DNA from: a virus
Direction: 5' to 3' (one strand)
IMG/VR virus record: IMGVR_UViG_3300036886_000363
Location: 1 to 64,000 of that record
Length of the DNA stretch: 64,000 nt
A program made the translations under genes and the position numbers. The notes beneath the pieces are model-generated. The model was not told where the DNA came from. It made no database searches and was given only the letters and a program-made list of their open reading frames with translations. Positions 18,892 through 44,236 of the stretch are shown piece after piece (within the stretch, counting starts at the first letter, position 1; each line of letters begins with the position of its first letter).

Positions 18892-21800
18892 TTACTTTAC
18901 ATCTCCCAATAGTTTGATCTTGTCTGAAAAGTTTTTAATTCCTGCTTCGAAATCTTTTCTATTATTGGGATTGTGAAGAACTGCTGCAGGATGGATGCAC
19001 CAACAAATCCAGCAGCCGACCTTCTCGTTCCATTCTGTTTTGCCGCTTATTGATATTATACCCCCGTCTCGATCTGTTAATGCTTTTATTGCAGTGTTGC
19101 CAAATGCGAGTATCAGACAGGGATTGACAATCTTGATTTCTTGTTCAAGCCATTTCCAGCATGCTTTGATCTGAGTTTTATTCGGAGTTCGGCTTTTTGC
19201 AGGAAAACATTTTGCAATATTTGTAACATGAAAATCTTCCCGATATAATTCATACTTGAGAAGCTCTGGCCATAATATGTCTTTCCCTGCCCTGCCAATG
19301 AATCCATCTCCTTCTCTGTCTTCATCTGGCCCGGGAGCTTCTCCCAACGCCATGAGGTTATATTTTCCGGGAGAGGGAAGGACAGGGCCGAACTCACATT
19401 CTTTGCCGAGTTCGCAGGAACAACAATCTATTAAACCCCAGTCTACAGGGAAGAAGAATGTTTTCTCCTCTATATAATTCAGATGAGAAGCAGGGATATC
19501 CAGAGCCAGTAGTTTGTCTATATCGGGAAACATGAGATCAAGATTTCCCCTGAGCAATTTTGGATACATGAGTTTCTTATCAGTGAATACTCTGAAGGAA
19601 AAATACTTCCCGACATCTTTTGCAGGCTCATCCCCGAAGGCGCCGATCTCCGTTAACATTTTTTCCAGCTTGCTCATATTCTCTGTTCCCGTCCGGACAT
19701 TAAAGAAGCCCTGTAGTTGGTTATTGCTCCTTTTTCTTGCAGTCATACATTCAACAGCTGTCACTTCTCCAATTCCCTTGATCTCTTTGAAAGGGATATA
19801 AAGAGTATGATTTTTGGCAATCCATTTATCAGCATCGGAAACACCGACCTTTGGCAGGACAATCTTTAGTCCCAGACGATAAGCCTCTTCGATCAGCTCT
19901 ATTTTTTTTCTTGCATCTGAAGATCCATATGTCAAATTTGCACAAATAAATTCTGTCGGGTAATGATATTTAATAAAAGCAGTCCAATATCCGATCATTG
20001 CATATTCAACAGAGTGAGACCTGTTGAAAGAATAGTTGGCATGCTTTTGTAATGCAGTCCAGAATTCTTCTGCCTCTCGATCCGAGAAGGTCTTCAATTT
20101 TCGACAGCCTTCTATAAACGAATCTTTGAAGGGTTTGAACTCTTTTGCATCTCGTTTCTTGCCTATGATCTTGCGGATCTTATCGGCCGTTGCATAGGAT
20201 AGGCCGGCAACCTTATGAATGACTTCCATGATCTGCTCTTGATATGTTATGATTCCGTAGGTGTTTGCAGTGATCTCTTCATATATGGGATGTTTCTTTT
20301 CCCACCTCTCCCCTCTTTTTCTCTTGATGAAATCATCTGTCATGTGGGAATCAAATGGCCCGGGCCGGACAAGTGCAATGATATCTCCCAGAAGACTAAA
20401 ATTATCTGCTCCAATATCTTTTGCAAGTTTTGATGTCGCCCATGCACTAAATTGAAAGACACCAACATTGTTGCCCGCAGATATCTGAGCAAGGACATTT
20501 TTATCATCGAGGGGGATCTTCTCAAAAATGATATCTATACCATGATTCTGTTTGATAAGGTGTTTTGCCTCACTCAATATTGATAATGTATTCAGTCCGA
20601 GGATATCCAGTTTCATCAGCCCGACATATTCGGAGTCTTCCATATCCCAATTTGAAACAACATTTCCTGATCTCATAACGAGAGTGCATCGGGTTCCCTG
20701 AGTCAGATCATCCGCAGAGACAACAACAGCTGCGGCGTGCTGACCTGTTCCCATAACCTGCCTTTCCAGTTTGATTGCATGCTTGATGACATCTGGATAC
20801 TTGCGGGCAAATGCCTTGCCTTCCTCTGTATCTCTTATCGCTGATTCAATGATATCTTCATCTGGAGTTGTCTGGGCTGCGTTGTCTATAACTTTTGCAA
20901 ATCCGTCAACTTCTTTATTCTCGATGTCAAAGACCCGTGCGACATTTCTAATCGCTGCCCGGCCTTTCATTGTCAGGAAGGTGGATAGAGACGACACATT
21001 TTTTCTGCCATATAATTCTTCAAGGTGATCTCTGATTAAATGTCTCTTGCGATCTTCAAAATCCAGATCGATATCCGGAAGATCAATTCGTTCATCTGAT
21101 ATGAAGCGAGAAAACAAAAGGTTGAATTTAATCGGGTCGACGGTAGTGATTCCCAGCAGATAAGCAATCAGTGATCCGCCTACACTACCGCGACCCGGGC
21201 CAACCATGATATCATTCTTTCTGCACCACTCTGTTAATTCCCAGACAATCATGAAATACGGTGCGAACTTTTTGTCATGAATAATTTGCCATTCTTCAAT
21301 CAGTCGATCTTGATATTCCCTTTTTCCTTCTGGGAAAATCTCAAAGAGTTTTTCCCTACAAATATCCATGAGGAATTCTTCCGGATCAGCATTTTTATAT
21401 GCCGGAACCTTTGGCAAATAGATGTCTTGTTTCTTGATTGAGAATCCTTTGCATTTTTCTGCTATCTCTATTGTTGACTCAAGAGATTCTTGAATATCGT
21501 AATCGCTGAGGATTTCTTGTTGCCTGAAAGCATCGATCATTTCCTTTTCTGATCTCAGATGTAATCCATTGATTTCAAATTTATATCGATTTGTATCTGT
21601 CCATTTCGCCTTTGTCTGTATGGCAAGCAGTACTTCATGAGTCTGATCGTCATCGGCATTTATATAATGACAATCATTTGTAGCCACCAAACGGATATTC
21701 CAATTGTCTGCCGTCGAGACACAGAAAAGATTTGTCTGTTTTTGCCCGGCGAAATTGTGAGGCATTACTTCAAGGTAAAGATCATCTCGAAGCTTCTTAT

Positions 21801-22257
21801 TTAGATCACGGAGAAGATCGATTCCTCCCGGGAGATTGACAAAGGAGCTGTGACAGCCGGTCATGATAACCATCCCCTCACAAAATTCATAAAGCAGATC
21901 GAAGTCAATCCGGGGACGATGATAGAATCCTTCAAGATTGGCAATGGTCAGCATCTTGCACAGATTCTGGAATCCCTGCTCATTCTTTACAAGCAGGGTT
22001 ACATGCCCTCTGACCTCTTTTTCTTTGATTTCCAGCTTCTCGACGATATAGGCTTCGCATCCGAGGATTGGAATGATGTTTTGCTTTTTACAAGCTTTTT
22101 GGAATTTGATAAGACCGTCAATATTTCCATGATTTGTTAGTCCAAGATATCTCTGGTCAAGTTCTTTGGCTCTCTTGACATATCCTTCAGCCGTTCCAAA
22201 TCCATCAAGCAAACTGTATTCATCATGCACATGCAGATGACAAAAGTTATCGCTCAT
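18892..22257 (-). CDS. dnaE: DNA polymerase III alpha (DnaE-like) fused to a family-4-type uracil-DNA glycosylase
   Basis: 1121 residues. PHP domain at the start (HLHVHDEYSLLDG; VATNDCHYINADDDQTHEVL), then the C-family polymerase core: GPGRGSVGGSLIAYLLG (353-369), LPDIDLDFEDRKR (catalytic Asp395/397), MGTGQHAAAVVVS and KHANYSFNRSHSVEYAMIGY. The normal C-terminal tau-binding region appears replaced, from about 939, by a uracil-DNA glycosylase: LGEAPGPDEDREGDGFIGRAG, HVTNIAKCFPAKSRTP and CIHPAAVLHN. Its cysteines (945, 948, 1017, 1033) match the 4Fe-4S spacing of family 4. It probably couples synthesis to removal or sensing of uracil. Intact start to stop. Confidence 0.92.
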   Translation of the reverse strand: MSDNFCHLHVHDEYSLLDGFGTAEGYVKRAKELDQRYLGLTNHGNIDGLIKFQKACKKQNIIPILGCEAYIVEKLEIKEKEVRGHVTLLVKNEQGFQNLCKMLTIANLEGFYHRPRIDFDLLYEFCEGMVIMTGCHSSFVNLPGGIDLLRDLNKKLRDDLYLEVMPHNFAGQKQTNLFCVSTADNWNIRLVATNDCHYINADDDQTHEVLLAIQTKAKWTDTNRYKFEINGLHLRSEKEMIDAFRQQEILSDYDIQESLESTIEIAEKCKGFSIKKQDIYLPKVPAYKNADPEEFLMDICREKLFEIFPEGKREYQDRLIEEWQIIHDKKFAPYFMIVWELTEWCRKNDIMVGPGRGSVGGSLIAYLLGITTVDPIKFNLLFSRFISDERIDLPDIDLDFEDRKRHLIRDHLEELYGRKNVSSLSTFLTMKGRAAIRNVARVFDIENKEVDGFAKVIDNAAQTTPDEDIIESAIRDTEEGKAFARKYPDVIKHAIKLERQVMGTGQHAAAVVVSADDLTQGTRCTLVMRSGNVVSNWDMEDSEYVGLMKLDILGLNTLSILSEAKHLIKQNHGIDIIFEKIPLDDKNVLAQISAGNNVGVFQFSAWATSKLAKDIGADNFSLLGDIIALVRPGPFDSHMTDDFIKRKRGERWEKKHPIYEEITANTYGIITYQEQIMEVIHKVAGLSYATADKIRKIIGKKRDAKEFKPFKDSFIEGCRKLKTFSDREAEEFWTALQKHANYSFNRSHSVEYAMIGYWTAFIKYHYPTEFICANLTYGSSDARKKIELIEEAYRLGLKIVLPKVGVSDADKWIAKNHTLYIPFKEIKGIGEVTAVECMTARKRSNNQLQGFFNVRTGTENMSKLEKMLTEIGAFGDEPAKDVGKYFSFRVFTDKKLMYPKLLRGNLDLMFPDIDKLLALDIPASHLNYIEEKTFFFPVDWGLIDCCSCELGKECEFGPVLPSPGKYNLMALGEAPGPDEDREGDGFIGRAGKDILWPELLKYELYREDFHVTNIAKCFPAKSRTPNKTQIKACWKWLEQEIKIVNPCLILAFGNTAIKALTDRDGGIISISGKTEWNEKVGCWICWCIHPAAVLHNPNNRKDFEAGIKNFSDKIKLLGDVK

Positions 22258-25192: not shown

Positions 25193-26320
25193 TTGAAGCC
25201 GAAGCCTTCCACCTTCTTGATCTTGAAAGCCCATGGCCATGGAGGCAGATTGTCCTGGAGATCGAGAAAGTATATGATATTCAGTTCATCTCTGAGACGA
25301 TAGTCATTGCTCAATCCGGCTGTCTTAATTAATTCTATGATCCCGTCTTCTTTCCAAGCCGTGATCGGTTTATATCCCATGCCCATCTCGACATATTCTC
25401 TCTGGGCGTCTGCAAGCTCTTTCCCATACCAGCGCTCGCCTTCTTTAGGTTTGTAAGTTTTGGGATCTTCCTGCCGGAACTCACTTTCACCCATCTCAAA
25501 TCCTTTGGCCATAAAGTACTCGAGGATTTCTTTCTGCTCCATCTGAGAATATGTCGAGAAGTGCTGTCCTTCCTCTTTGTCTTTAGGAGATCGATTGGAG
25601 ACATTGATCGTCATCGAGTTCTGCATATAATCATACTTGCCCATTTTTTTCTTTGGGACATAGACAGCTCCGAAGCGCCCGGTCAAAACCCAACTTGTCG
25701 AATCAACAGAATACCATGGAAATCTGAGCATGAGATCAAGAGAGGTCATACCAAAGCCATGGATTTTGACTTTTGGCATTCCCTTGTCGTCACAGATAAA
25801 TTTGGAGAAGAGATTGTCGAGCCATTCTATTAATGAGACATTAGGGATCGGGACCATGCCTCCCAGAGAGACATAATCATAATTGTCCAGGTAATTTGTG
25901 AGGTAGTTTAAAGGCTCGCCATAGTGAAAGCAGGGAATCGGCTTCAATCCGGCATCCTCCATGATCTTCTGATTCTTTAATGTCTGGACGGGATCACCGA
26001 TTGCATCAAGGACAGAATAGTGATCGAGATAATCAATGTGATCCTTGATGAATTGGATATACTCTTGAATATTGATCTCGATCTTTTTTGACCATGCAGA
26101 GTATGCACCCGAGTCTAAAAACAATTCCACCTTTTTCATTTTGCCTCTTTCGTAGACCTCCCAAAGTTTTGTCGCTGGTTGGAGCTTACCTACTTCAATG
26201 CTATAATATGACATAAGTCTTGATGTCATACCGACACTTGCCATCCATCTTTCTTTCAAGCAAATCGATTTCGGCAACTCCACCCGGACGATCTGCATAT
26301 GAAGCAAGATAGAGTTTCAT
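25189..26320 (-). CDS. dpdA: DpdA-like 7-deazaguanine DNA transglycosylase, apparent N-terminal frameshift
   Basis: The main frame (about 370 codons) has phage DpdA/TgtA5 hallmarks: ELFLDSGAYSAWSKK, VLDAIGDPVQTLKNQKIMED, PIPCFHYGEPLNYL, YVSLGGMVPIPNVSL, KVKIHGFGMTSLDLM and RFPWYSVDSTSW. The family swaps guanine in DNA for preQ0-type bases. The natural start is ATG 26318-26320 (ATGA with folE; MKLYLASYADRPGG), which is in another frame. A +1 shift before SVGMTSRLMSYYSIE joins them. It follows queC and folE directly, fitting one modification pathway. Confidence 0.85.
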
Positions 26321-27234
26321 CTTTGTATCCTTGCCATGAATTCATCTTTGCAACCGTTCCGATTTTCCGCAAAGTATCCCCGAACGGCGATGGGTTCATA
26401 AGGGGAATTCCACTTTTTGACTCCTCTCATCTCTTTGCAAAGATGCCGGGCCTTCATGACCAGTACTTGCCCGAGTGGCTTTGTCACTTCTTCAAAATAG
26501 TCAACAACATTATTTATCAATCTCTCTGCAATTTGAAGTCTCCCAGAATAATAGTCAATGACCCGCGCGATCTTGCTTGTTCCCATGATCCATTTATCTG
26601 GAATGTAAGCATAATAATATTCTCCGAAGAAAGGAATCATGTGATGTTCACAATAAGAAAAGAAGTATCCTGAGTCAATGAGCATCTCATTATAAATGAC
26701 TCCATCGATGCCATTTTCAAAAAGAGTTACTTTTGGCATGCGGGCAGGATCATAAGCGCAGAAGAATTCATTATACATCTTTGCGATTCTCTGGGGAGTA
26801 TCTTTGAGCCCGGGCCGATCAGGATCTTCTCCGATAAATTCGAGGATGCGGACAATGTTATCTTCGATGGTGGAATCTGCATCACTGACTTCCCAGAAGT
26901 ATTGAATCCAACCATCAACTTGATTTGCATGATAGGTTGGCAAGGAATCTATAGGAGTTGTTGATTTGATATGCAGGCAGGCAAAATCGTGTTGTGAATA
27001 TCTCTTTCTTGTCTGCCCACTATCAACAACATCATCGACAACAAGAGTCTCTCCCACCCATGCGATTTCTGTCATTGGAATTTGTAATAGATGAGACAGA
27101 TCTATCGCCAATGGGATTCCTCCCCGTGGAACACCATAGATATTTTTGTATGTTCCCCCTGCCTGCATGATTTGCTGTGCAAGCTTTGCCGCATCTCTAT
27201 AAAAGTCGTCCAGACTATAGATAATGTCTATCAT
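26317..27234 (-). CDS. folE: Phosphoribosyltransferase-like domain fused to GTP cyclohydrolase I
   Basis: 305 residues. Residues 1 to about 115 look like a type I phosphoribosyltransferase: YGVPRGGIPLAIDLS and the PRPP loop TLVVDDVVDSGQT (64-75). Residues about 120-305 are FolE: EDPDRPGLKDTPQRIAKMY, FFSYCEHHMIPFFGEYY (zinc Cys195, His198) and KARHLCKEMRGVKK (Cys266). FolE makes dihydroneopterin triphosphate from GTP, the first step to preQ0. The added PRTase domain is unusual and may salvage purine to feed GTP; that is inference. Confidence 0.9.
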   Translation of the reverse strand: MIDIIYSLDDFYRDAAKLAQQIMQAGGTYKNIYGVPRGGIPLAIDLSHLLQIPMTEIAWVGETLVVDDVVDSGQTRKRYSQHDFACLHIKSTTPIDSLPTYHANQVDGWIQYFWEVSDADSTIEDNIVRILEFIGEDPDRPGLKDTPQRIAKMYNEFFCAYDPARMPKVTLFENGIDGVIYNEMLIDSGYFFSYCEHHMIPFFGEYYYAYIPDKWIMGTSKIARVIDYYSGRLQIAERLINNVVDYFEEVTKPLGQVLVMKARHLCKEMRGVKKWNSPYEPIAVRGYFAENRNGCKDEFMARIQR

Positions 27235-27908
27235 TTCTTCACCGGGCTTTCATATTGAATAGGGTCGGTTCTTCCGATATTTGCAAAAGCCTCAAGTCTT
27301 TCCTGACAAGAGCCGCATTTCCCGCAGCTTAGAAATTGATCTTTGTAACAAGTTCTGGTCAGCTCGTAGGGAACAGCAGGAGAGATTCGATATCCCAATT
27401 TTAAGATTGAAGTTTTGTTATCGTAAAGAAAGGGAGCTGAGAGCTGCACCCTTGCTCCGGATCCATCGACGACTGCTTTCTGCATCGAGAAGATAAACTC
27501 TGGTCTGCAATCTTCATAAATGGCATGATCGCCTGCATGAACTCCAACTGCAACAATATCGGCTCCAATCGACCATGCATATCCCATCATGATTGCGACG
27601 AAGATAGTGTTTCTGCCGGGGACGACTGTCTGAGACATCGATGCATCGTTATAATGACCTTCGGGGATATCTCCGCCTGTCTTGAGAAGATTGGATTTGA
27701 AGAGCTGGCCGATGAAGGGGAGATCGATGTTGACAATTTCAGGCAGCTCATAAAACTTCGCGATCTTTTCAGCTGCCTCTGTCTCGTATTTGTTGTGCTT
27801 GCTCCCATAATTAAAATTGACAGGGTGTATCTCCGCTCCGAGATGTCTAAAATACCCACAAAGAGTAGCACTGTCCATACCGCCGGATAGACCTAACACT
27901 ACTTTCAT
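27231..27908 (-). CDS. queC: QueC, 7-cyano-7-deazaguanine (preQ0) synthase
   Basis: 225 residues. PP-loop ATPase motif VLGLSGGMDSATL at residues 4-16, TVVPGRNTIFVAIMMGYA in the middle and the C-terminal zinc site RTCYKDQFLSCGKCGSCQER. It converts carboxy-deazaguanine to preQ0 with ATP and ammonia. Ribosome site ATAGGAGGCAG; first gene after the promoter at 27946. Confidence 0.95.
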   Translation of the reverse strand: MKVVLGLSGGMDSATLCGYFRHLGAEIHPVNFNYGSKHNKYETEAAEKIAKFYELPEIVNIDLPFIGQLFKSNLLKTGGDIPEGHYNDASMSQTVVPGRNTIFVAIMMGYAWSIGADIVAVGVHAGDHAIYEDCRPEFIFSMQKAVVDGSGARVQLSAPFLYDNKTSILKLGYRISPAVPYELTRTCYKDQFLSCGKCGSCQERLEAFANIGRTDPIQYESPVKK

Positions 27909-27945
27909 ATCTCTGCCTCCTATATAATGTTTGATATTTGATTAT

Positions 27946-27969
27946 ATTATATCATGATTTTTTGCTGTG
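27946..27969 (-). promoter_or_regulatory. Leftward promoter, TATAAT with CACAG box 13 bp upstream
   Basis: On the minus strand CACAG (27965-27969), 13 bp, TATAAT (27946-27951), then ATAATC. It drives queC-folE-dpdA and possibly the whole clamp-polymerase operon. Same arrangement as at 15.68, 32.79 and 37.35 kb. Confidence 0.75.
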
Positions 27970-27972
27970 CGA

Positions 27973-28006
27973 TAAAATAAAAAGGGGGAGCATCAATGTG
28001 CTCCCC
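27973..28006 (-). terminator. Intrinsic terminator after the 28.0-28.6 kb gene
   Basis: Minus-strand hairpin: GGGGAGCA (27999-28006) pairs with TGCTCCCC (27985-27992) around a six-base loop, followed by CTTTTTATTTTATC. It ends the short transcript from the 28.68-kb promoter just before the queC promoter. Confidence 0.85.
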
Positions 28007-28037
28007 TCTCTTCAGATAGAGGCACAATCACGAATAT

Positions 28038-28610
28038 TTACTTTATGCTGTATTCACCCTTCTCACTCTTGACGAATTTGACCTTCTTTTCCTTTTCCAT
28101 GCGGGTCTGTTTCTTGCCGCCGATCTGGACTTGAACCGTCTTTGCCATCTTCGCCTCTTCCCTGTCAGGAAACTTCTTGACAAGCGCGGCCAGGATCTTC
28201 TCTTTGGTGATCGGACCTTTCTCTTTGATGATCTCAAGAATTGATTCGATGACTCCCGGGCCTTTGTCAGCTTTCTTCTCGCCCTTCTTGCCTGCTGCCT
28301 TTTTCTTTCCCTTTGTCTTGCCGTCGCCTGCTTCGGGTGTGCCTGCTTCAGCTGCCTTTGCGGCTTTCTCTTCCATCTCGAGAACGAGGTTGTTGAATGC
28401 CAGAGCTTCTTTCGGGCCGGGGAACTTGCCTTCGACATCGGGGATAACTCCCATCGCGTCCATGAACTTTTTGAGGATGACTTCTTTCTCTGCTCCAACG
28501 AGTTCGATCAAGGCCAACTTATTGGCTTCGAGGATCCCACTTTTGTTGAGGGCGGTTACTGCCACTCTCAAATCCTTAAACTTTACATCAACCACTGCTG
28601 TCTTTCCCAT
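28038..28610 (-). CDS. Hypothetical basic protein with winged-helix-like C-terminus
   Basis: Start at ATG 28608-28610 (MGKTAVVDVKFKDLRVAVTA) behind AAAGGAG; 190 residues. An acidic/helical N-domain is joined by a lysine-alanine linker (KTKGKKKAAGKKGEKKADKG) to ILEIIKEKGPITKEKILAAL, which reads like a winged-helix module, ending in VKFVKSEKGEYSIK. It has its own promoter and terminator, suggesting high expression. A nucleoid-like or DNA-binding role is likely but not proven. Confidence 0.72.
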   Translation of the reverse strand: MGKTAVVDVKFKDLRVAVTALNKSGILEANKLALIELVGAEKEVILKKFMDAMGVIPDVEGKFPGPKEALAFNNLVLEMEEKAAKAAEAGTPEAGDGKTKGKKKAAGKKGEKKADKGPGVIESILEIIKEKGPITKEKILAALVKKFPDREEAKMAKTVQVQIGGKKQTRMEKEKKVKFVKSEKGEYSIK

Positions 28611-28681
28611 AATCTTTTCTCCTTTCATCTTTTGTCTGGTTTGAATTTCTGTATCGCCTGTACCTCTCTGATCTTGAATAT

Positions 28682-28705
28682 ATTATATCATGCGGTTTGG
28701 CCAAT
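28682..28705 (-). promoter_or_regulatory. Leftward promoter of the single-gene unit at 28 kb
   Basis: Minus strand GCATGATATAATATATTC with TATAAT at 28682-28687. The CACAG box is replaced by CATTG at about the same distance, so this is a variant of the class. It lies 72 bp upstream of the gene start. Confidence 0.6.
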
Positions 28706-28736
28706 GCGATATTTTTGTTTGGTGTCGGTTTGTACT

Positions 28737-30299
28737 CTACAAAACATCAAGAAATTTATGTAGTTGTAGAGAAATTACCACTCCTTTTTTCTTGAGCATG
28801 TTCACTTTGTCCATCCATCCTACAAGGATTTTTGGATCGAGCTTGTCATGAGAGGGTGAAAAGGCAAATCGACAGCCTTGATGTCTGAAAAGATGGACAA
28901 TATAAAGAGCATCTTCGAAGTCAGCCCAATCTGCAATAACAAATTTAATGAAAGATTCTCTGCCTAAGTTTTCAAAGTTTTTAACCCACTTATAATGACT
29001 CATTCCGCTTGATGGACCTTTCCAATCTGCGACATAATGGATCCCCGGATATGGATGCATATAGATCGAGCCATTGGTTTCAATCGAGACTTGAAATTTA
29101 TCCATGAAAAGTTCTTTAGCAACCATGATAATATCTGATTGCAGAAGGGGCTCGCCTCCTGTGATAGTAATGTTTGTATTCCCGAAGGAGACAGTCTTTT
29201 TGAGAACATCATCGATTGACATCTCTTGCCCGGCGGTCTCATCTTGAGCATAAGGGGTATCGCAATTATGAACCCACATATAATCAAGCAAAAAACTATT
29301 ATAAGGAGAACAAGACAAATTATACACTTTCAATAGATTTGGCCTCAGAGAAGGAGGATAATTATTCCTATTAATTTCCTTGATTGAAAGGATTTTAAGT
29401 CCATTTATTGCAGATAATTTTTTGCCGTCTTTTCTATTATTTTTCCAAAAGTTATATCCTATTTCATGGGTAGAATAATGACAAGATTCACATTCAACTT
29501 TTAGATTTTCTGAAGAATCATTTTTTCTATTGCTGTCTTTATGATGAACATCTAAAGACTTCTTTCTTTTGCAAATAGAACATTCTTTTATTTTTCCTTC
29601 TTTTATATCTTGTTTTAATTTATCATAATTGGGTGTTTTTGATCCTCCACTCCAATTAGGATTTTTGTCTCCCATTTTTGGTAAGGATTGTTTTTTTCTT
29701 AATTCTTCTTTTTGTTTTTTTGAAAGAGAATTATAAGGAGAAATATAAGTTCCTTCTTCTTGTTTCTTTTTAATTGTGTTGCTAATTTTTTTTCCAGAGA
29801 TACTATAGTTAGTGTTTTCAATAGATTTTTTCTTAATATCATTGTCTTTCATCGGATTTTTAATTCCTGTTATTCTAAATGATAATTTATCCTTGAAATT
29901 AGAATGATAGATTTCGTTCCCTATTTGTAAATCTTTAGCTTTCTTTATTCCTTGAGTTGTAAAAAAGGGATGCTCTTCAGTTACATAATACTCGTGTTTT
30001 TCTATTTTTATTCTTAACCAAGAATTAACCTCTCTAACAATGATATTTGTAATTTCTGTTTCTACCAAATTCTTTTCTTTATCAAAGGTCAATAATTTAT
30101 CTCCAACTTCAACATTATATATTTTTTTGTTGGGTTTGGAAGACAGAATGACTTTAGGGACATGGCGTCCTGGCATAACCCCAAAACAGTAACTACATTT
30201 CAGATTGCAGCCCGCGAGACGGATGAAGGTACAAAGACTCCCTTGATGTGAGGCAGAGATTTCCCCATTGATGCTACTAAAAATACTATGAACTTTCAT
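28737..30299 (-). CDS. queE: QueE (7-carboxy-7-deazaguanine synthase) interrupted by an intein
   Basis: 520 codons. The exteins form a 212-residue radical-SAM enzyme: KVHSIFSSINGEISASHQGS, the 4Fe-4S motif CNLKCSY then CDTPYAQDE after splicing, and NTNITITGGEPLLQSD. QueE converts carboxytetrahydropterin to carboxy-deazaguanine. The intein (residues 38-345) splits the CxxxCxxC motif before its third cysteine, so no active enzyme can form until splicing. First cysteines are Cys31 and Cys35; the third is Cys346. Confidence 0.93.
   Translation of the reverse strand: MKVHSIFSSINGEISASHQGSLCTFIRLAGCNLKCSYCFGVMPGRHVPKVILSSKPNKKIYNVEVGDKLLTFDKEKNLVETEITNIIVREVNSWLRIKIEKHEYYVTEEHPFFTTQGIKKAKDLQIGNEIYHSNFKDKLSFRITGIKNPMKDNDIKKKSIENTNYSISGKKISNTIKKKQEEGTYISPYNSLSKKQKEELRKKQSLPKMGDKNPNWSGGSKTPNYDKLKQDIKEGKIKECSICKRKKSLDVHHKDSNRKNDSSENLKVECESCHYSTHEIGYNFWKNNRKDGKKLSAINGLKILSIKEINRNNYPPSLRPNLLKVYNLSCSPYNSFLLDYMWVHNCDTPYAQDETAGQEMSIDDVLKKTVSFGNTNITITGGEPLLQSDIIMVAKELFMDKFQVSIETNGSIYMHPYPGIHYVADWKGPSSGMSHYKWVKNFENLGRESFIKFVIADWADFEDALYIVHLFRHQGCRFAFSPSHDKLDPKILVGWMDKVNMLKKKGVVISLQLHKFLDVL
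29265..30188 (-). mobile_element. Intein with HNH homing endonuclease in QueE
   Basis: About 308 residues. It begins CFGVMPGRHVPKVILSSKP (block A with Cys1), has block B VTEEHPFFTTQGIKKAKDLQ, an HNH domain (CSICKRKKSLDVHHKDSNRK ... VECESCHYSTHE) and ends DYMWVHN followed by Cys+1, the standard His-Asn/Cys splice junction. Also AT-richer than the exteins. All residues needed for splicing are present, so it is probably active. Confidence 0.93.
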
Positions 30300-30300
30300 T

Positions 30301-30477
30301 TTATGCTCTCCCTATTATTTGCTTTTCTACTCCCTTTTGTACTCTTTTAATATACTCCATAGTTTTTACTTGATTTGCCAGTATGTCTAACCAAGGCTTT
30401 AGTTCACAATTGTCCTTGTGTTTTTCTAACATTTCTTTTGATTCTCTAATGGCATCTTCTATCGACTCATTTTTCAT
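30301..30477 (-). CDS. Hypothetical helical protein, 58 aa
   Basis: Starts MKNESIEDAIRESKEMLEKH at ATG 30475-30477 and ends at TAA 30301-30303 right before queE. All helix, charged (MEYIKRVQKGVEKQIIGRA at the end). Overlaps the zinc-protein gene by 11 nt. No family recognised. Confidence 0.65.
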   Translation of the reverse strand: MKNESIEDAIRESKEMLEKHKDNCELKPWLDILANQVKTMEYIKRVQKGVEKQIIGRA

Positions 30478-30670
30478 TTTTGTGTCCTCTCCTCAGACAA
30501 TCTTTCGTGATACAATTGCCCTCTGGATCAACCTGAATATGACCGCATCCTTCGCAAATTACACACGCAGCCATATCCTTTGCCCAGTCCTCAGGTTTGG
30601 TTATTCCTTTCATATCTCCAAAATCTTGCCTGAAAATTTTCTCAGAACATTGCTTGCAATAATCGCTCAT
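30467..30670 (-). CDS. Zinc-finger protein, 67 aa
   Basis: Start by ATGA overlap at 30670: MSDYCKQCSEKIFRQDFGDM. Cysteine pairs YCKQC, CVICEGCGHIQV and NCITKDC would bind one or two zincs. The middle (GITKPEDWAKDMAACVICEG) is typical of phage CxxC proteins with a treble-clef-like end. Function unknown. Confidence 0.7.
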   Translation of the reverse strand: MSDYCKQCSEKIFRQDFGDMKGITKPEDWAKDMAACVICEGCGHIQVDPEGNCITKDCLRRGHKNEK

Positions 30671-30876
30671 GATTTGTGACTCCTGATTCCCCTGACTTGT
30701 TGAATGGCAAACCATACTGAGACAAAAAGCATTCCCCATTGCTCGGCTGTCCACTCTGCATATAACCAAAATGGTGCCCCGCAAAGTCCGCAGATGAATC
30801 CTTGCCTATATCTCTTCCCTGCCAGAAGCCAGATCGAGAGACAAGAACAAATTACAATCCCTGTCTGACAGATCAT
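30667..30876 (-). CDS. Small membrane protein (two or three spans), 69 aa
   Basis: Starts MICQTGIVICSCLSIWLLAG and continues RYRQGFICGLCGAPFWLYAE then MLFVSVWFAIQQVRGIRS. The layout (helix, RxxGF loop, W-rich helix, helix, NxRG-like end) recalls half-size PnuC-like proteins common in phages, but this is a weak resemblance. ATGA overlap with queD. Confidence 0.6.
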   Translation of the reverse strand: MICQTGIVICSCLSIWLLAGKRYRQGFICGLCGAPFWLYAEWTAEQWGMLFVSVWFAIQQVRGIRSHKS

Positions 30877-31235
30877 GGGATTACCTCGCAGAAACTATTC
30901 TCTGTTTCCTTGAGAATAATCTTTTGGATATAAACACCCTGATTCATGAAAGGGCCAATCAACATATTAACAATATGGTTGGCCAGCAATTCGGATGTTG
31001 GAATAAAATGGACAACCTCATTGAGAACCTTATGATCGAATTGATCGATGACATTCTCTTCAACAATCTTTTTCAGATCGGCATAATCCATTACCATCCC
31101 ATTTTGAAGCATACCTGCAATTTCAACGATCAACTCCCAGCGATGGCCATGGAGATTCTTGCATTTGCCCGGGTGATCCGGCAGGAAATGTGCCGCCTCA
31201 AAAGTAAACCTTCTACTTATTTTTGTTTTTGACAT
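30873..31235 (-). CDS. queD: QueD, 6-carboxytetrahydropterin synthase
   Basis: 120 residues. FTFEAAHFLPDHPGKCKNLH followed by GHRWELIVE carries the zinc histidines and catalytic cysteine; VMDYADLKKIVEENVIDQFD with HKVLNE and a late Glu (LKETENSF) complete the fold. It converts dihydroneopterin triphosphate to carboxytetrahydropterin, the substrate of QueE encoded nearby. Confidence 0.94.
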   Translation of the reverse strand: MSKTKISRRFTFEAAHFLPDHPGKCKNLHGHRWELIVEIAGMLQNGMVMDYADLKKIVEENVIDQFDHKVLNEVVHFIPTSELLANHIVNMLIGPFMNQGVYIQKIILKETENSFCEVIP

Positions 31236-39678: not shown

Positions 39679-40080
39679 TTAAAAATCGAGGGCTCTTTTT
39701 AGATGCCCTTCCTGTGGTTTCGGTTTGTCTGGTTTCTTTTGAGGTATAAAGGGAGGATATTCACCCGGTCTTAAATCCCTTCGTTTGTTTGCCATGTCTT
39801 GTAAAGTTCGGGAAGTTTTTCGGAGAGGCTTCCCATCCGATAATTTTCTTGCATCATATCGTCTGCGATCTGTATCCAGAGACTCTTTAATAGTTTTATT
39901 TCCCAGTGAAGACAATCTTCTCTCTGCAGCTCTTGCCAATGCAGGGTATCCAAATACTTCAGCTGCTTTTATGAAGCTTCTGAGCTTATCTGTCTTTGTG
40001 ATTTTGTTGAGACGGGTAAGAAGCTGTCCGGTAGTCATTTCTTGAAATCTTTTCCTTTCGTGATCCATCAGGTCTTTCAT
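39679..40080 (-). CDS. Hypothetical protein with LKRALDF tip, 133 aa
   Basis: MKDLMDHERKRFQEMTTGQL; N-terminal helices resembling a repeat pair (LRSFIKAAEVFGYPALARAA) and a proline-rich tail (PPFIPQKKPDKPKPQEG) ending HLKRALDF. The tail acts like a flexible linker presenting the tip. Its leader contains the first hammerhead ribozyme and an ACAAAACTTAG motif. Confidence 0.7.
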   Translation of the reverse strand: MKDLMDHERKRFQEMTTGQLLTRLNKITKTDKLRSFIKAAEVFGYPALARAAERRLSSLGNKTIKESLDTDRRRYDARKLSDGKPLRKTSRTLQDMANKRRDLRPGEYPPFIPQKKPDKPKPQEGHLKRALDF

Positions 40081-40112: not shown

Positions 40113-40170
40113 GATCTCATCAGTGCTGTCATTAACAGCAGACCCGGGCATTCTATCCCGGGTTTCGATC
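40113..40170 (-). ncRNA. Hammerhead ribozyme, type II layout (copy 1)
   Basis: Minus-strand order: GATC (stem II, 5' side), GAA, stem III ACCCGGG/CCCGGGT with an 8-base loop, cleavage triplet GTC, stem I TGCTGT/ACAGCA with loop TAATG, CTGATGA, GATC (stem II, 3' side). All catalytic core positions of the hammerhead (CUGAUGA and GAAA, NUH = GUC) are present and every stem pairs perfectly. Expected cleavage lies between 40141 and 40140. It lies in a 96-nt intercistronic gap, so self-cleavage would cut the polycistronic mRNA. Confidence 0.93.
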
Positions 40171-40176
40171 TTTGAG

Positions 40177-41061
40177 TTAGAATTGGATATCTCTCTTGAG
40201 TGGTGTATCAATGTAAGTATTGATCTGCTCAAGGAGCTTCTCCGCTACTTTGGCGACCTTCGTCTTCGTCTTGTCATTTTGCAGGTCTGTATCAGAGATG
40301 CTTGCCACCTTCAAATTTACCTCGCCCAGAGTTTCCGTGAGGGCTTTGTCTCCGGAGATATTGAGAACCGGGAGCAACGAGATCAAATCGCGCAGGCCTG
40401 ACATGACAGCCTTATCTTCTTGAAATCTCATTCTATCGGCGCTCAGGCGATCAACGATTGTCTTCACCGCCTCTGCCAATCTCTTCCAAAGATCCTTGGA
40501 GATATTGCCGTAACGATCAGAGATCGAGCCGACTAAGTTTTTCCTGACCTCTGCGAGAAGTTTTTTGTTTGCTTCGATTACAAAATGCCCGCTATTAGGA
40601 ACCGGGAAGTAATCAATCTGGATCGACCACTTTGCCGCGAATTCGTCGAAGCTCAGATAATCATTTTCATCCCAGAGATCGCCCAGCGATGCCTTCGCCT
40701 TTACAAAGACCGCCTCTTGATACTTCGGTTTAAAGTCTATCAATTTGTCTTTCAATTCCTGAGAAAGCTCTTCATGGGTTTTGTTAAGTTTCTCCATGTT
40801 GGCGACGGGCAGCATCCGGACTCCTTTTGTCCATGGAACGGTCAGGGAATAAAACATCTTGAGCATTTTTCTTTGAGTATAATGGAGAGGTCCGGCATCT
40901 GTCAAGAGCTTCTTGATTACCCGGGCGCTGGTCTCATCGGCATGCTTTCTCGTTGTAAGTTCATCGGAAGCTTCTTTGTCATGTTTATTGACACCAAACT
41001 CTGTCATGGTAAGGTCAGCCAGTACCGCCACTTTTCCTAAATCTTGAATTTCTTCTTTCAT
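40177..41061 (-). CDS. DUF3150-like protein with LKRDIQF tip
   Basis: 294 residues: VAVLADLTMTEFGVNKHDKE, a long helical part (PVANMEKLNKTHEELSQELK), AVFVKAKASLGDLWDENDYL and IQIDYFPVPNSGHFVIEANK. This matches the arrangement of DUF3150-type proteins that accompany MoxR/AAA ATPases in phages. It ends TPLKRDIQF. Part of the 41-43 kb AAA cluster and likely its partner. Identity by eye only. Confidence 0.65.
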   Translation of the reverse strand: MKEEIQDLGKVAVLADLTMTEFGVNKHDKEASDELTTRKHADETSARVIKKLLTDAGPLHYTQRKMLKMFYSLTVPWTKGVRMLPVANMEKLNKTHEELSQELKDKLIDFKPKYQEAVFVKAKASLGDLWDENDYLSFDEFAAKWSIQIDYFPVPNSGHFVIEANKKLLAEVRKNLVGSISDRYGNISKDLWKRLAEAVKTIVDRLSADRMRFQEDKAVMSGLRDLISLLPVLNISGDKALTETLGEVNLKVASISDTDLQNDKTKTKVAKVAEKLLEQINTYIDTPLKRDIQF

Positions 41062-41098
41062 GATTGTTCTCCTTTTTATATGAGTTGTAAGTTATTGG

Positions 41099-41299
41099 TT
41101 AGTGAGAATGTGCATGATCGTGATCGTGAGCCCCGTGATCGGCATCTGGATCCTCTTCAATAGTGACCTTGCCGCCCATAAGTTTATCCATCTTTGTGAG
41201 AAGCTCGTCAGCCGACATATGATTGCCGCTGCTGATCTCAGATGTCGTGACAACGATCGTTCCGTCTTCCAATATTTTGAATGTGATGCTATCTGCCAT
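41099..41299 (-). CDS. Small protein with histidine-rich tail, 66 aa
   Basis: Start at ATG 41297-41299 (MADSITFKILEDGTIVVTTS) after GGAGGTCAATC. The C-terminus GAHDHDHAHSH is a metal-binding histidine run. Similar short phage proteins with His-rich ends are known, with no assigned function. In operon with the AAA ATPase. Confidence 0.75.
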   Translation of the reverse strand: MADSITFKILEDGTIVVTTSEISSGNHMSADELLTKMDKLMGGKVTIEEDPDADHGAHDHDHAHSH

Positions 41300-41310
41300 G
41301 ATTGACCTCC

Positions 41311-41643
41311 TTAAAATCTTTGGAGCTGGAAAGTATTTTCGTCCAGCTGATTTTTGAACCACTGATCCTCTTCGCTGATCTCATCAATGACACACTCGCT
41401 ATATGTCCTCTTGAGCGAGTTGGAGAAGTCTGCAAGTTCTCTGTCATTCATGCTTGTGCTTTGCAGCATCCCGTTTCGGAGATCGATGACAAAAGAGTTG
41501 TATCCACCGCTATTTGCGACGATTGTATATCCATCGCTTCTCATATAATGTCCGAGTCCTTGTTTCTCCAAAGCCTTTTTCAGGATATCAATATTCTCAA
41601 CTCTGAATTGAACTGTTGCTGTTCTTATCTCGTAGCAAGGCAT
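41311..41643 (-). CDS. DUF1257 (Ycf35-like) protein
   Basis: 110 residues starting MPCYEIRTATVQFRVENIDI. The order of strands and helices, with the DGYTIVANSGGYNSFVIDLR core and a late acidic segment (YSECVIDEISEEDQWFKNQL), matches DUF1257, related to algal/cyanobacterial Ycf35. Next to a Ycf46-like AAA ATPase. Role unknown. It ends LQRF, a weak variant of the aromatic tip. Leader has ACAAAACTTAG. Confidence 0.7.
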   Translation of the reverse strand: MPCYEIRTATVQFRVENIDILKKALEKQGLGHYMRSDGYTIVANSGGYNSFVIDLRNGMLQSTSMNDRELADFSNSLKRTYSECVIDEISEEDQWFKNQLDENTFQLQRF

Positions 41644-41672
41644 ATTCTGTTCCTCCTCTAAGTTTTGTGAAG

Positions 41673-41691
41673 GGGCAGGGATGACCTGCCC
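41673..41691 (-). repeat. Short GC hairpin in the intercistronic gap
   Basis: GGGCAGG and CCTGCCC pair around a five-base loop, 41673-41691, between the AAA ATPase stop and the DUF1257 leader. No T-run follows on the minus strand, so it is an mRNA stabiliser or pause site rather than a clear terminator. Confidence 0.6.
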
Positions 41692-41699
41692 TTGTTTGA

Positions 41700-43256
41700 T
41701 TACATATCAAGTTTGCGACCGGAAGATTTCTTTTCGGCGACGACCATTGCCTTTGATGCCGGGACTGTCCTGCCTTCCTTCCATTGAAGCAACCAATCGA
41801 TATCTTCCTTCATAGTTTTGCTTATGGGAAGAATGAGCTGATCGGCGTCGTTGGCATCTTTGCCTTTTGAAATCTTCTTAGCTGCGAGCTTGCACCAAGT
41901 CTCAAGTTCTGCTCCCGACCACCCTTCTGTATCTACTTTCGGGCATGCCTTTGCAGGCAGACCGTAGACTTTTTTGTGATGATTGAGAATCGCTTCTCTC
42001 TCTGCGATGTTCGGCAGATTGACAAAGATCGGAGCTGTATCCCACCTGCCTGCCCGTAAGTATTCAGCGGGCAGAGAGGAGATATCGTTGCAGGTCGCGA
42101 AGACAATTATTCCCGGGATCCGATTGCTCAGAAATTTAAGGAGCAGTGAATTGCTTCTGTCTGTCGATCCGCTATCTCCACCACCTTGTCTTCCCATCTT
42201 TGATGTTCCGGCTAATCCTTTTTCCAGTTCATCGATGAAGACATAAATCGGATTTAATGGATTTGCATTGGCTGTGATGACTGCGATTGATTTCGCATAG
42301 GCATTCTCTTTCTGCCCGACGAGACCTTCACCTTGCATCTGCGCCAATTCCCACTCGATGCACATTGTATCGTAATGCGCGGCGAGCAGCTGAACGAATC
42401 TTGATTTGCCAGTCCCTGGAGGGCCGACAAAGATCATGCCCTTTGCATTTGGATCATCTCTCCACTCATCGGCTAATTCTTTGGCAATCTCGAAGCCAAT
42501 CAGATCAGTGAGCTTGCCTGTATACTTACCAATCTTTAATCCGGGTGTTGAGTTGATCTCTTCAGCCCTCAATTCCTCGACTGTCTTTGGATCAAAGTAT
42601 CCAGCATTCTTGACGAGGCTGTAAGAGAAAACTTTGATGATCTCTGCGCTGCTCAGACCTTTCGCGCCGGCAATGATCCTCTGCTTATCTTTGGTATCTG
42701 GCTCTTTGAACTGTGGATTTCCCTTTGCCGAGTAAACAATAAACTGATAAAGGGTCTCGATCTCTTTTTCATCGGGCAGGTCGTAGCTGACCTTTGCAAA
42801 TTCCCTCTTGAGAATAGACGGGATCGCTTTATCGAAGCTTTCCTCTCCGACGATGATAAGTATCTTGCGATACTCGGGAGATGAAAACTTCGTCGATCTG
42901 TTTAGCAGCCATGCAACGGTCTCTTTATTTGACTTGCCGTATTGATCGACGACAAACCAGTTATAGTTTTTTGCGATCACGATTTGCCCGGCTTCGATCT
43001 GGTCTCTCTCCTCTCTGATATTTTCGAGGAGGTTAATCATCTCTTTTGGATTGTTGTACTTGCTCTGCCCATTGTCTCCTGTCGACTCATAATCCCAAAC
43101 GGCAACCCGATATTTCGTGCCGTTGGTGTTTGCCTTGAAATATTCTTCGAGGCTGTCTTTGACATCTTGGACTGTCTTGTTTGGTTCTTGAGTCTCAATG
43201 TAAAAATAAGCATATCCGCTCTTGATACCGAATATCAATTCTGATGTTCCTTTCAT
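41700..43256 (-). CDS. Ycf46-like AAA+ ATPase
   Basis: 518 residues. N-terminal part begins MKGTSELIFGIKSGYAYFYI, with IVIAKNYNWFVVDQYGK and ILIIVGEESFDKAIPSILKR as seen in Ycf46-type ATPases. The AAA domain follows: MIFVGPPGTGKSRFVQLLAA (Walker A 278-285), PIYVFIDELEKGLAG (Walker B) and AEYLRAGRWDTAPIFVNLP (arginine finger region). An insertion rich in Gly/Ser (RQGGGDSGSTDRSNS) precedes the sensor strand. Likely remodels a phage or host complex with the DUF1257 and DUF3150-like partners. Confidence 0.82.
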   Translation of the reverse strand: MKGTSELIFGIKSGYAYFYIETQEPNKTVQDVKDSLEEYFKANTNGTKYRVAVWDYESTGDNGQSKYNNPKEMINLLENIREERDQIEAGQIVIAKNYNWFVVDQYGKSNKETVAWLLNRSTKFSSPEYRKILIIVGEESFDKAIPSILKREFAKVSYDLPDEKEIETLYQFIVYSAKGNPQFKEPDTKDKQRIIAGAKGLSSAEIIKVFSYSLVKNAGYFDPKTVEELRAEEINSTPGLKIGKYTGKLTDLIGFEIAKELADEWRDDPNAKGMIFVGPPGTGKSRFVQLLAAHYDTMCIEWELAQMQGEGLVGQKENAYAKSIAVITANANPLNPIYVFIDELEKGLAGTSKMGRQGGGDSGSTDRSNSLLLKFLSNRIPGIIVFATCNDISSLPAEYLRAGRWDTAPIFVNLPNIAEREAILNHHKKVYGLPAKACPKVDTEGWSGAELETWCKLAAKKISKGKDANDADQLILPISKTMKEDIDWLLQWKEGRTVPASKAMVVAEKKSSGRKLDM

Positions 43257-43298
43257 GGCTTTTCTCCCTTTAAGTTTTGTCTGAGTTATTTGTTCATT

Positions 43299-43649
43299 TT
43301 ATAGTTTTTCATGTATCTTCTGGATCTCTCTCCATGAGAGACTATTGAAACATTCTTCGCTGCAAAAATCTCCCTTATTTGTTTTTTTGTAGGCTTCATT
43401 GTGGAATAAGAATTGACCGCATACAACACAGGAATTTTCATAATCTTCTTTTTTATTGATTTCTTTGTCCATCAGATTTTTCAGCTCGGTGTAAATCAGG
43501 CTCTTGCATGTCTGGTGGCTAAGCTTATCCAGATCATAATTGTAATCCATCAAAAGTTCTGTGATGTCATCTGTCCATGAATCTTCGAGTTTGTCGAAGA
43601 GATATGCCGCTAATTGATCGATCGTCTTTTTTGTAAGTTTTGTCTTCAT
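43299..43649 (-). CDS. Zinc-finger protein, 116 aa
   Basis: Start at ATG 43647-43649 (MKTKLTKKTIDQLAAYLFDK) behind GAGGGAGGAAG. Helical N-domain, then a zinc finger ENSCVVCGQFLFHNEAYKKT / KGDFCSEECFNSLSWREI (CxxC...CxxxC). The first codons themselves contain ACAAAACTTAC. Function unknown. Confidence 0.7.
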   Translation of the reverse strand: MKTKLTKKTIDQLAAYLFDKLEDSWTDDITELLMDYNYDLDKLSHQTCKSLIYTELKNLMDKEINKKEDYENSCVVCGQFLFHNEAYKKTNKGDFCSEECFNSLSWREIQKIHEKL

Positions 43650-43651
43650 GA

Positions 43652-43738
43652 TTATCTTCCTCCCTCTCTTAAACAAGCGTGCATGAAAATGATTATCCAA
43701 ATAACTAAACCGCCCATCATTGCCGCAAATCCTGTCAT
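43652..43738 (-). CDS. Tiny membrane protein, 28 aa
   Basis: MTGFAAMMGGLVIWIIIFMH then ACLREGGR. One membrane span; ribosome site GGGAGGAAAAT with an AACTTAGG leader motif; ends next to the following gene start. Short but with a complete expression signal. Confidence 0.5.
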   Translation of the reverse strand: MTGFAAMMGGLVIWIIIFMHACLREGGR

Positions 43739-43756
43739 GATATTTTCCTCCCTAAG

Positions 43757-43981
43757 TTATGCTCCGATTGTTAAGTAATAACCGGCGGCTGTTACTCTGA
43801 TTTTGCCGTTTGGCTTGTTGATAAATAATGGACATGATCCGGTAAAATGGATGATTGCCTCTGCAATCAGGTCCAGATTCTCTTTTGAAGAAATTGTTGA
43901 GTTTATCCGGTTTTTCCAGTTCTTTTTATTGCTGACTTTGTTAAACGCTTCTTTCAATTGTTCCTGAGAATATTTTTTCAT
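43757..43981 (-). CDS. Hypothetical protein, 74 aa
   Basis: Start at ATG 43979-43981 (MKKYSQEQLKEAFNKVSNKK) behind TTTTGGAGG. Helical first half, then GSCPLFINKPNGKIRVTAAG strand region. First gene of the leftward transcript from 44.2 kb, directly after a hammerhead ribozyme. No family recognised. Confidence 0.65.
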   Translation of the reverse strand: MKKYSQEQLKEAFNKVSNKKNWKNRINSTISSKENLDLIAEAIIHFTGSCPLFINKPNGKIRVTAAGYYLTIGA

Positions 43982-44006
43982 GATCTTTTCCTCCAAAATT
44001 TATTTT

Positions 44007-44060
44007 GATCTCATCAGTGCTGTCATTAACAGCAGACCCGGATTTAACCGGGTTTCGATC
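44007..44060 (-). ncRNA. Hammerhead ribozyme, type II layout (copy 2)
   Basis: Minus-strand order: GATC, GAA, stem III ACCCGG/CCGGGT with loop TTAAAT, GTC cleavage site, stem I TGCTGT/ACAGCA with loop TAATG, CTGATGA, GATC. Core, stem I and stem II are identical to copy 1; stem III is one pair shorter with a different loop but remains perfectly paired, which is compensated variation. It lies in the 5' leader of the first leftward gene; cleavage would remove the leader about 50 nt before the start codon. Confidence 0.93.
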
Positions 44061-44207: not shown

Positions 44208-44236
44208 AATATATGATATTGAGATGTTCATGTCAA
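44208..44236 (-). promoter_or_regulatory. Leftward sigma70-type promoter TTGACA-17-TATATT
   Basis: On the minus strand TTGACA (44231-44236), 17 bp, TATATT (44208-44213). This is the only near-consensus host-type promoter seen on the minus strand. It should fire early by host RNA polymerase and produce the leader containing hammerhead copy 2. Confidence 0.85.

What the first reader, a model, noticed from the sequence alone, without database searches (positions are those of the whole stretch)
40113..40170. Hammerhead ribozyme inside a phage operon
Seen: all invariant core bases, a GTC cleavage site and three perfectly paired stems on the transcribed (minus) strand, in a gap between two genes. 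Known: hammerheads self-cleave at NUH; type II forms occur in phages and bacteria. Inferred: it cuts the mRNA between the DUF3150-like gene and the next one, uncoupling their stability or translation.
Basis: partly seen in the sequence, partly recalled or inferred. Interest (0 to 1): 0.8.

Follow-up and report, generated by a model that had tools for sequence, protein, structure and literature searches.

The report
Paired self-cutting ribozymes in phage operon
This phage carries two copies of a known self-cutting RNA (a type II hammerhead ribozyme), placed so that they should trim and split one multi-gene messenger RNA; the kind was described in 2011, but this pair shows it clearly and belongs to a short form that the standard RNA library scores below its cut-off.

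Summary
Window 40113-40170 (minus strand) is a complete type II hammerhead ribozyme with predicted cleavage between 40141 and 40140. Rfam scores it below its curated cut-off (30.4 vs 37 bits). A covariance model built only from other phages' ribozymes finds it at E 2.3e-16. Together the two would release a 3,894-nt RNA carrying the AAA-ATPase gene and its neighbours. The upstream gene is not recognisably DUF3150. In 2.9 million viral contigs such ribozymes are common. Of 154 unique examples, 90% start at the stop codon of a same-strand ORF (16% of random positions) and 71% also have a start codon just downstream. All 59 contigs with several ribozymes carry them on one strand. Most likely function: co-transcriptional cutting of a phage polycistronic RNA, leaving a GC-rich 3' hairpin upstream and a flush 5' hairpin with a 5'-OH downstream. 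Perreault et al. (2011) already proposed such processing. This window adds a new member of a short pentaloop form (17-nt stem-loop I, 4-bp stem II, no pseudoknot). Cleavage itself is not shown here.

The parts
40113..40170 (-). HHR2: type II hammerhead ribozyme between two genes; cleavage predicted between C40141 and U40140
   Evidence: Sequence; RF02276 30.4 bits; R1 54.7 bits, E 2.3e-16; fold z -4.28
44007..44060 (-). HHR1: second type II hammerhead in the operon leader; cleavage predicted between C44035 and U44034. Same stem I, core and stem II as HHR2, different stem III
   Evidence: R1 64.4 bits, E 8e-20
40141..44034 (-). 3,894-nt RNA segment expected to be released by the two cuts
   Evidence: Arithmetic on the two cleavage sites; spacing also
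44208..44236 (-). Candidate sigma-70 type promoter TTGACA-17-TATATT (11 of 12), about 150 nt upstream of HHR1
   Evidence: Consensus scan only
43757..43981 (-). First ORF after HHR1 (74 aa), SD GGAGG at 43994-43990, unknown function
41700..43256 (-). AAA-family ATPase gene (518 aa) inside the bracketed segment
   Evidence: PF00004 E 9.4e-15; phrog_8638 E 1.4e-44
40177..41061 (-). 294-aa ORF upstream of HHR2; stop codon 6 nt before the ribozyme; no recognisable family (not DUF3150 by Pfam)
39679..40080 (-). 133-aa ORF downstream of HHR2; SD GGAGG at 40089-40085, ATG at 40080

Best explanation
Two type II hammerhead ribozymes act in cis during transcription of a phage minus-strand operon. HHR1 cuts about 165 nt of leader off. 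HHR2 cuts between the 294-aa gene and the 133-aa gene. Each cut leaves stem III (GC-rich, close behind the stop codon at HHR2) as a hairpin at the 3' end of the upstream RNA, with a 2',3'-cyclic phosphate. It leaves stem I as a flush hairpin at the 5' end of the downstream RNA, with a 5'-OH. The polycistronic transcript thus becomes separate mRNAs with protected ends, so that stability and expression of the units are set independently. In effect this would be a protein-free counterpart of the RNase III processing of T7 early mRNA. Shown: ribozyme sequence, fold, family membership and gene context. Inferred: cleavage in the cell, end protection and the benefit to the phage.
For: Model R1 from 18 other phage ribozymes finds both copies at E 8e-20 and 2.3e-16, next best 0.52. 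Of 154 unique type II hammerheads (the window's two among them, the rest from phage contigs), 138 lie at a same-strand ORF stop (90%, random positions 16%), 125 have a start codon just after (81%, random 43%) and 110 have both (71%, random 8%, opposite strand 4%). All 59 contigs with more than one hammerhead have them all on one strand, median spacing 451 nt. Stem III is 88% G+C in contigs of 53%. An SD-like motif follows in 137 of 155 short-form cases (no random control was run for this). Perreault et al. (PMC3088659) showed tandem hammerheads cutting in vitro, A. tumefaciens ones cutting in E. coli, and an HF1/HF2 viral mRNA 5' end mapped within 3 nt of the ribozyme's cleavage site.
Against: No transcript or cleavage data exist for this phage. 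The short form lacks the loop I-tail pseudoknot that speeds many type II hammerheads, so its rate at cellular Mg2+ is unknown. In Perreault et al. 4 of 18 consensus hammerheads did not cleave in vitro. End protection rests on general knowledge, not on data here. Conservation at this site could not be tested: the only related contig found is 100% identical over the proteins compared.
Confidence: 0.72

Rival explanations
1. The ribozymes are gene-control switches: cleavage (perhaps regulated) changes access to the downstream Shine-Dalgarno sequence, and RNA processing is secondary.
For: For HHR2, predicted unpaired probability of the SD rises from 0.39 to 0.78 and of the start codon from 0.52 to 0.92 after cleavage. 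Ribozymes sit at a typical 15-35 nt before start codons.
Against: HHR1 shows no such change (SD 0.61 to 0.57), the values depend on the stretch folded, and no ligand domain or conserved extension is seen.
Confidence: 0.12
2. The two ribozymes excise the 3.9-kb segment, which is then circularised (5'-OH to 2',3'-cyclic phosphate) by a host RtcB-type ligase.
For: The two cuts leave ends that RtcB joins (established chemistry), and the geometry resembles retrozymes.
Against: No RtcB or RNA_ligase family member in the 83-kb record, which may be incomplete. Perreault et al. looked for circular or spliced products of tandem hammerheads and found none. Most contigs carry one hammerhead or many between single genes.
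Confidence: 0.05
3. The ribozymes are selfish or hitch-hiking RNA elements copied within the phage, cutting but of no use to it.
For: The two copies share stem I, core and stem II exactly; 53 of 59 multi-copy contigs carry only one form.
Against: Strict placement at stop codons, never on both strands, and compensatory variation of all three stems between phages point to selection for position and activity.
Confidence: 0.08

Closest known systems
Type II hammerhead ribozyme, Rfam RF02276 (Perreault et al. 2011, PMC3088659)
   Same: Complete core, stems I and III closed and stem II open, GUC cleavage site, prophage/phage intergenic setting, clusters flanking genes
   Different: Short form: 17-nt stem-loop I with a 5-nt U-N-A-N-G loop and 4-bp stem II, no loop I-tail pseudoknot; scores below the Rfam cut-off
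Tandem hammerheads of Agrobacterium (ardA), Azorhizobium and C. scindens
   Same: Several hammerheads flank single genes or gene blocks on one transcript; cleavage shown in vitro, and for Agrobacterium in E. coli
   Different: Different genes; this pair brackets 3.9 kb with an AAA-ATPase gene, one copy in the leader and one between genes
Halovirus HF1/HF2 leader hammerhead variant
   Same: Hammerhead just upstream of the first gene of a viral operon, as HHR1; a natural mRNA 5' end maps to the cut
   Different: Variant core and archaeal virus; here the core is canonical
RNase III processing sites of phage T7 early mRNA (own knowledge)
   Same: Works alike: a polycistronic phage RNA is cut between genes and upstream products keep a 3' hairpin
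   Different: Protein enzyme of the host and 5'-phosphate ends; not homologous

Membership tests
Hammerhead ribozyme (clan CL00010) | Invariant core CUGANGA, GAAA and NUH cleavage triplet at the three-way junction | tested here: met
   Both copies by direct reading and by R1 alignment
Hammerhead ribozyme (clan CL00010) | Three helices kept by compensatory change | tested here: met
   A1, 18 relatives: 12 of 17 pairs with changes on both sides, 100% paired, 0 of 500 shuffles reach it; the descriptor that collected them required partly paired stems, so this is biased upward. Window copies fit the model
Rfam RF02276 type II | Open stem II, closed stems I and III | tested here: met
Rfam RF02276 type II | Score at or above the curated cut-off of 37 bits | tested here: not met
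   30.4 and 27.9 bits. In eight contigs of the short form only 2 of about 25 copies pass, against about 25 of 28 in five long-form contigs: the model fits this form poorly
Rfam RF02276 type II | Pseudoknot of loop I with the tail after stem II | tested here: not met
   Short form: mean run 2.03 vs 1.83 with random tails; long form: 4.32 vs 3.07. Not required of all hammerheads according to PMC3088659
Hammerhead ribozyme (clan CL00010) | Self-cleavage at the predicted site | not testable with these tools
   Needs a transcription and cleavage assay
DUF3150 (PF11348), upstream gene | Match to the family profile | tested here: not met
   No match in the record at E<=10

The most novel reading that the evidence does not exclude
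The short U-N-A-N-G pentaloop form (4-bp stem II, no pseudoknot) is a separate, largely uncatalogued branch of type II hammerheads with its own tertiary contact. Many phages would use hammerheads, placed flush at stop codons, to cut operons into single-gene mRNAs on a genome-wide scale, so that a terminating ribosome on the stem II strand times the cut.
Probability: 0.25. Interest if true: 0.65.

Novelty: new member of a known kind. Interest (0 to 1): 0.42.

Why it matters
The role of bacterial and phage hammerheads is called an open question in the literature (PMC6155905). This locus gives two near-identical ribozymes in one phage, one in a leader and one between genes, with exact cut sites, so core mutants test the mRNA-processing idea directly. 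The survey adds quantitative support (placement at stop codons, one strand only, GC-rich 3' hairpin) and shows that Rfam's cut-off misses most of one form.

Tried and rejected
Intrinsic terminator: stem III is followed by UCUGCUG, not a U run, and no terminator is predicted there. Chance match: rejected by descriptor and model. CRISPR repeat, CsrB and HOTTIP weak hits and window-wide hits to Xist, mir-84, CRISPR-DR36 and Atu_L1: all below cut-off, chance. Other Rfam ribozymes in the rest of the record: none. Similar DNA in isolated phages: none (weak 18-22-nt chance matches only, none). Same stem I, or the short form with a GATC stem II, in bacterial genomes: none. Relatives of the flanking proteins to test conservation at the site: only one 100% identical contig. 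Searches for papers on 5'-OH and RNase E with hammerheads, and on T7 RNase III, gave nothing usable.

Full report
OBSERVATION. The minus strand at 40170-40113 is a full type II hammerhead ribozyme: GATC (stem II), GAAA, CCCGGG-AUAGAAUG-CCCGGG (stem III), UC with cleavage after C40141, UGCUGU-UAAUG-ACAGCA (stem I), CUGAUGA, GATC. It folds alone into this shape at -23.5 kcal/mol, z -4.28. A strict descriptor gives two sites in the window and 2 in 150 simulated windows. Rfam's type II model scores it 30.4 bits, under the curated 37.

SECOND COPY. The search of the record (83,436 bases, virus) gave a second match at 43999-44060 on the same strand. It reads GATC-GAAA-CCCGG-UUAAAU-CCGGG-UC|UGCUGU-UAAUG-ACAGCA-CUGAUGA-GATC, with the same stem I, core and stem II and a shorter stem III. 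Its cut lies between 44035 and 44034. It sits in a 5' leader: an 11-of-12 promoter match lies at 44236-44208, and the first ATG, with an SD, is at 43981. The two cuts would release 3,894 nt of RNA carrying the AAA ATPase gene (PF00004), the 294-aa gene and small genes. The rest of the record holds no further Rfam match.

INDEPENDENT MODEL. I built a covariance model from 18 hammerheads of other phages that share one stem III length, with none from this phage. It finds the two window copies at 64.4 bits (E 8e-20) and 54.7 bits (E 2.3e-16); the next window hit is E 0.52. E-values from this short calibration are rough, but the gap is wide. In the 18 sequences, 12 of 17 pairs show changes on both sides and every cell is paired; no shuffle reaches this. 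The collecting descriptor required partial pairing, so this figure is biased upward.

CONTEXT IN OTHER PHAGES. A structural descriptor gives 165 hammerheads, 154 unique, in 100 sequences, the window included. Of the 154, 90% have a same-strand ORF stop near the ribozyme start, within 30 nt before and 20 nt after it (random positions 16%, opposite strand 19%). 81% have a start codon just downstream (random 43%), and 71% have both (random 8%, opposite strand 4%). Stop distances cluster at -1 to +2; at -1 the stop is nearly always TAG, whose G is the first base of stem II. With the second collection there are 307 hammerheads. 59 contigs carry two or more and none has them on both strands; median spacing is 451 nt, and stem III is 88% G+C against 53% for the contigs. 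In L033 ten ribozymes separate consecutive genes. ORF calls are mechanical.

TWO FORMS. The long form (mostly 21-24-nt stem-loop I, 2-3-bp stem II) has loop I-tail complementarity beyond random tails (mean run 4.32 vs 3.07). The short form (17-nt stem-loop I, 4-bp stem II, loop mostly U-N-A-N-G) does not (2.03 vs 1.83). The second collection was selected on U-N-A-N-G, but the form already made up 41 of 154 in the first collection, which was not selected on the loop. The window copies are short form, with the common UAAUG loop. Rfam passes 2 of about 25 short-form copies in eight contigs but about 25 of 28 in five long-form contigs. 53 of 59 multi-copy contigs carry one form only, with the caveat that the second collection favours the short form. 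PMC3088659 already says that many hammerheads lack the pseudoknot and may use other contacts, so the form is at most a refinement.

MECHANISM. The cut leaves stem III as a GC-rich 3' hairpin on the upstream RNA and stem I as a hairpin starting at base 1 of the downstream mRNA, with a 5'-OH. From general knowledge both ends resist decay (3' exonucleases stall at hairpins; RppH and the RNase E 5' sensor need 5' phosphates). I therefore favour mRNA processing with end protection. A role in translation is possible for HHR2 but not for HHR1 by predicted SD access. Circularisation is unlikely: no RtcB or RNA ligase family member in the record, and Perreault et al. found no circles.

KNOWN OR NEW. 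Perreault et al. 2011 described type II hammerheads, clusters flanking genes in prophages, cleavage of tandem arrays in vitro and of one in E. coli, and proposed processing of long phage transcripts. They also noted a mapped viral mRNA 5' end at a leader hammerhead cut in HF1/HF2. The finding is thus a new member of a known kind.

Noticed in passing
window 26317-31235, minus: 7-deazaguanine pathway genes: GTP cyclohydrolase I (26317-27234, also a partial phosphoribosyltransferase match at residues 3-57), QueC (27231-27908), a radical SAM protein, possibly QueE (28737-30299), and 6-pyruvoyl tetrahydropterin synthase/QueD-like (30873-31235). Suggests 7-deazaguanine-modified phage DNA.
   Followed up: no
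window 28737-30299, minus: The radical SAM ORF also matches a HINT domain at residues 56-156, below the Pfam cut-off: possible intein inside a QueE-like enzyme.
   Followed up: no
L033 2800-6750 minus; L020 8400-11320 plus; L150 9150-13230 minus: Arrays of 7-11 type II hammerheads, one between nearly every pair of small genes.
   Followed up: partly
phage contigs L013-L132: In about a fifth of cases the upstream stop codon is TAG and its G is the first base of ribozyme stem II, so a terminating ribosome would cover the ribozyme.
   Followed up: partly
L195: One contig mixes short-form and long-form hammerheads (4 and 3 by the descriptor), unlike most multi-copy contigs.
   Followed up: no
window 16614-18890, minus: 758-aa ORF joining SNF2/helicase and N6/N4 DNA methylase domains.
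   Followed up: no
window 18892-22257, minus: DnaE-like DNA polymerase, closest among isolated phages to Streptomyces phages at about 35% identity although the window is about 42% G+C; host unknown.
   Followed up: no
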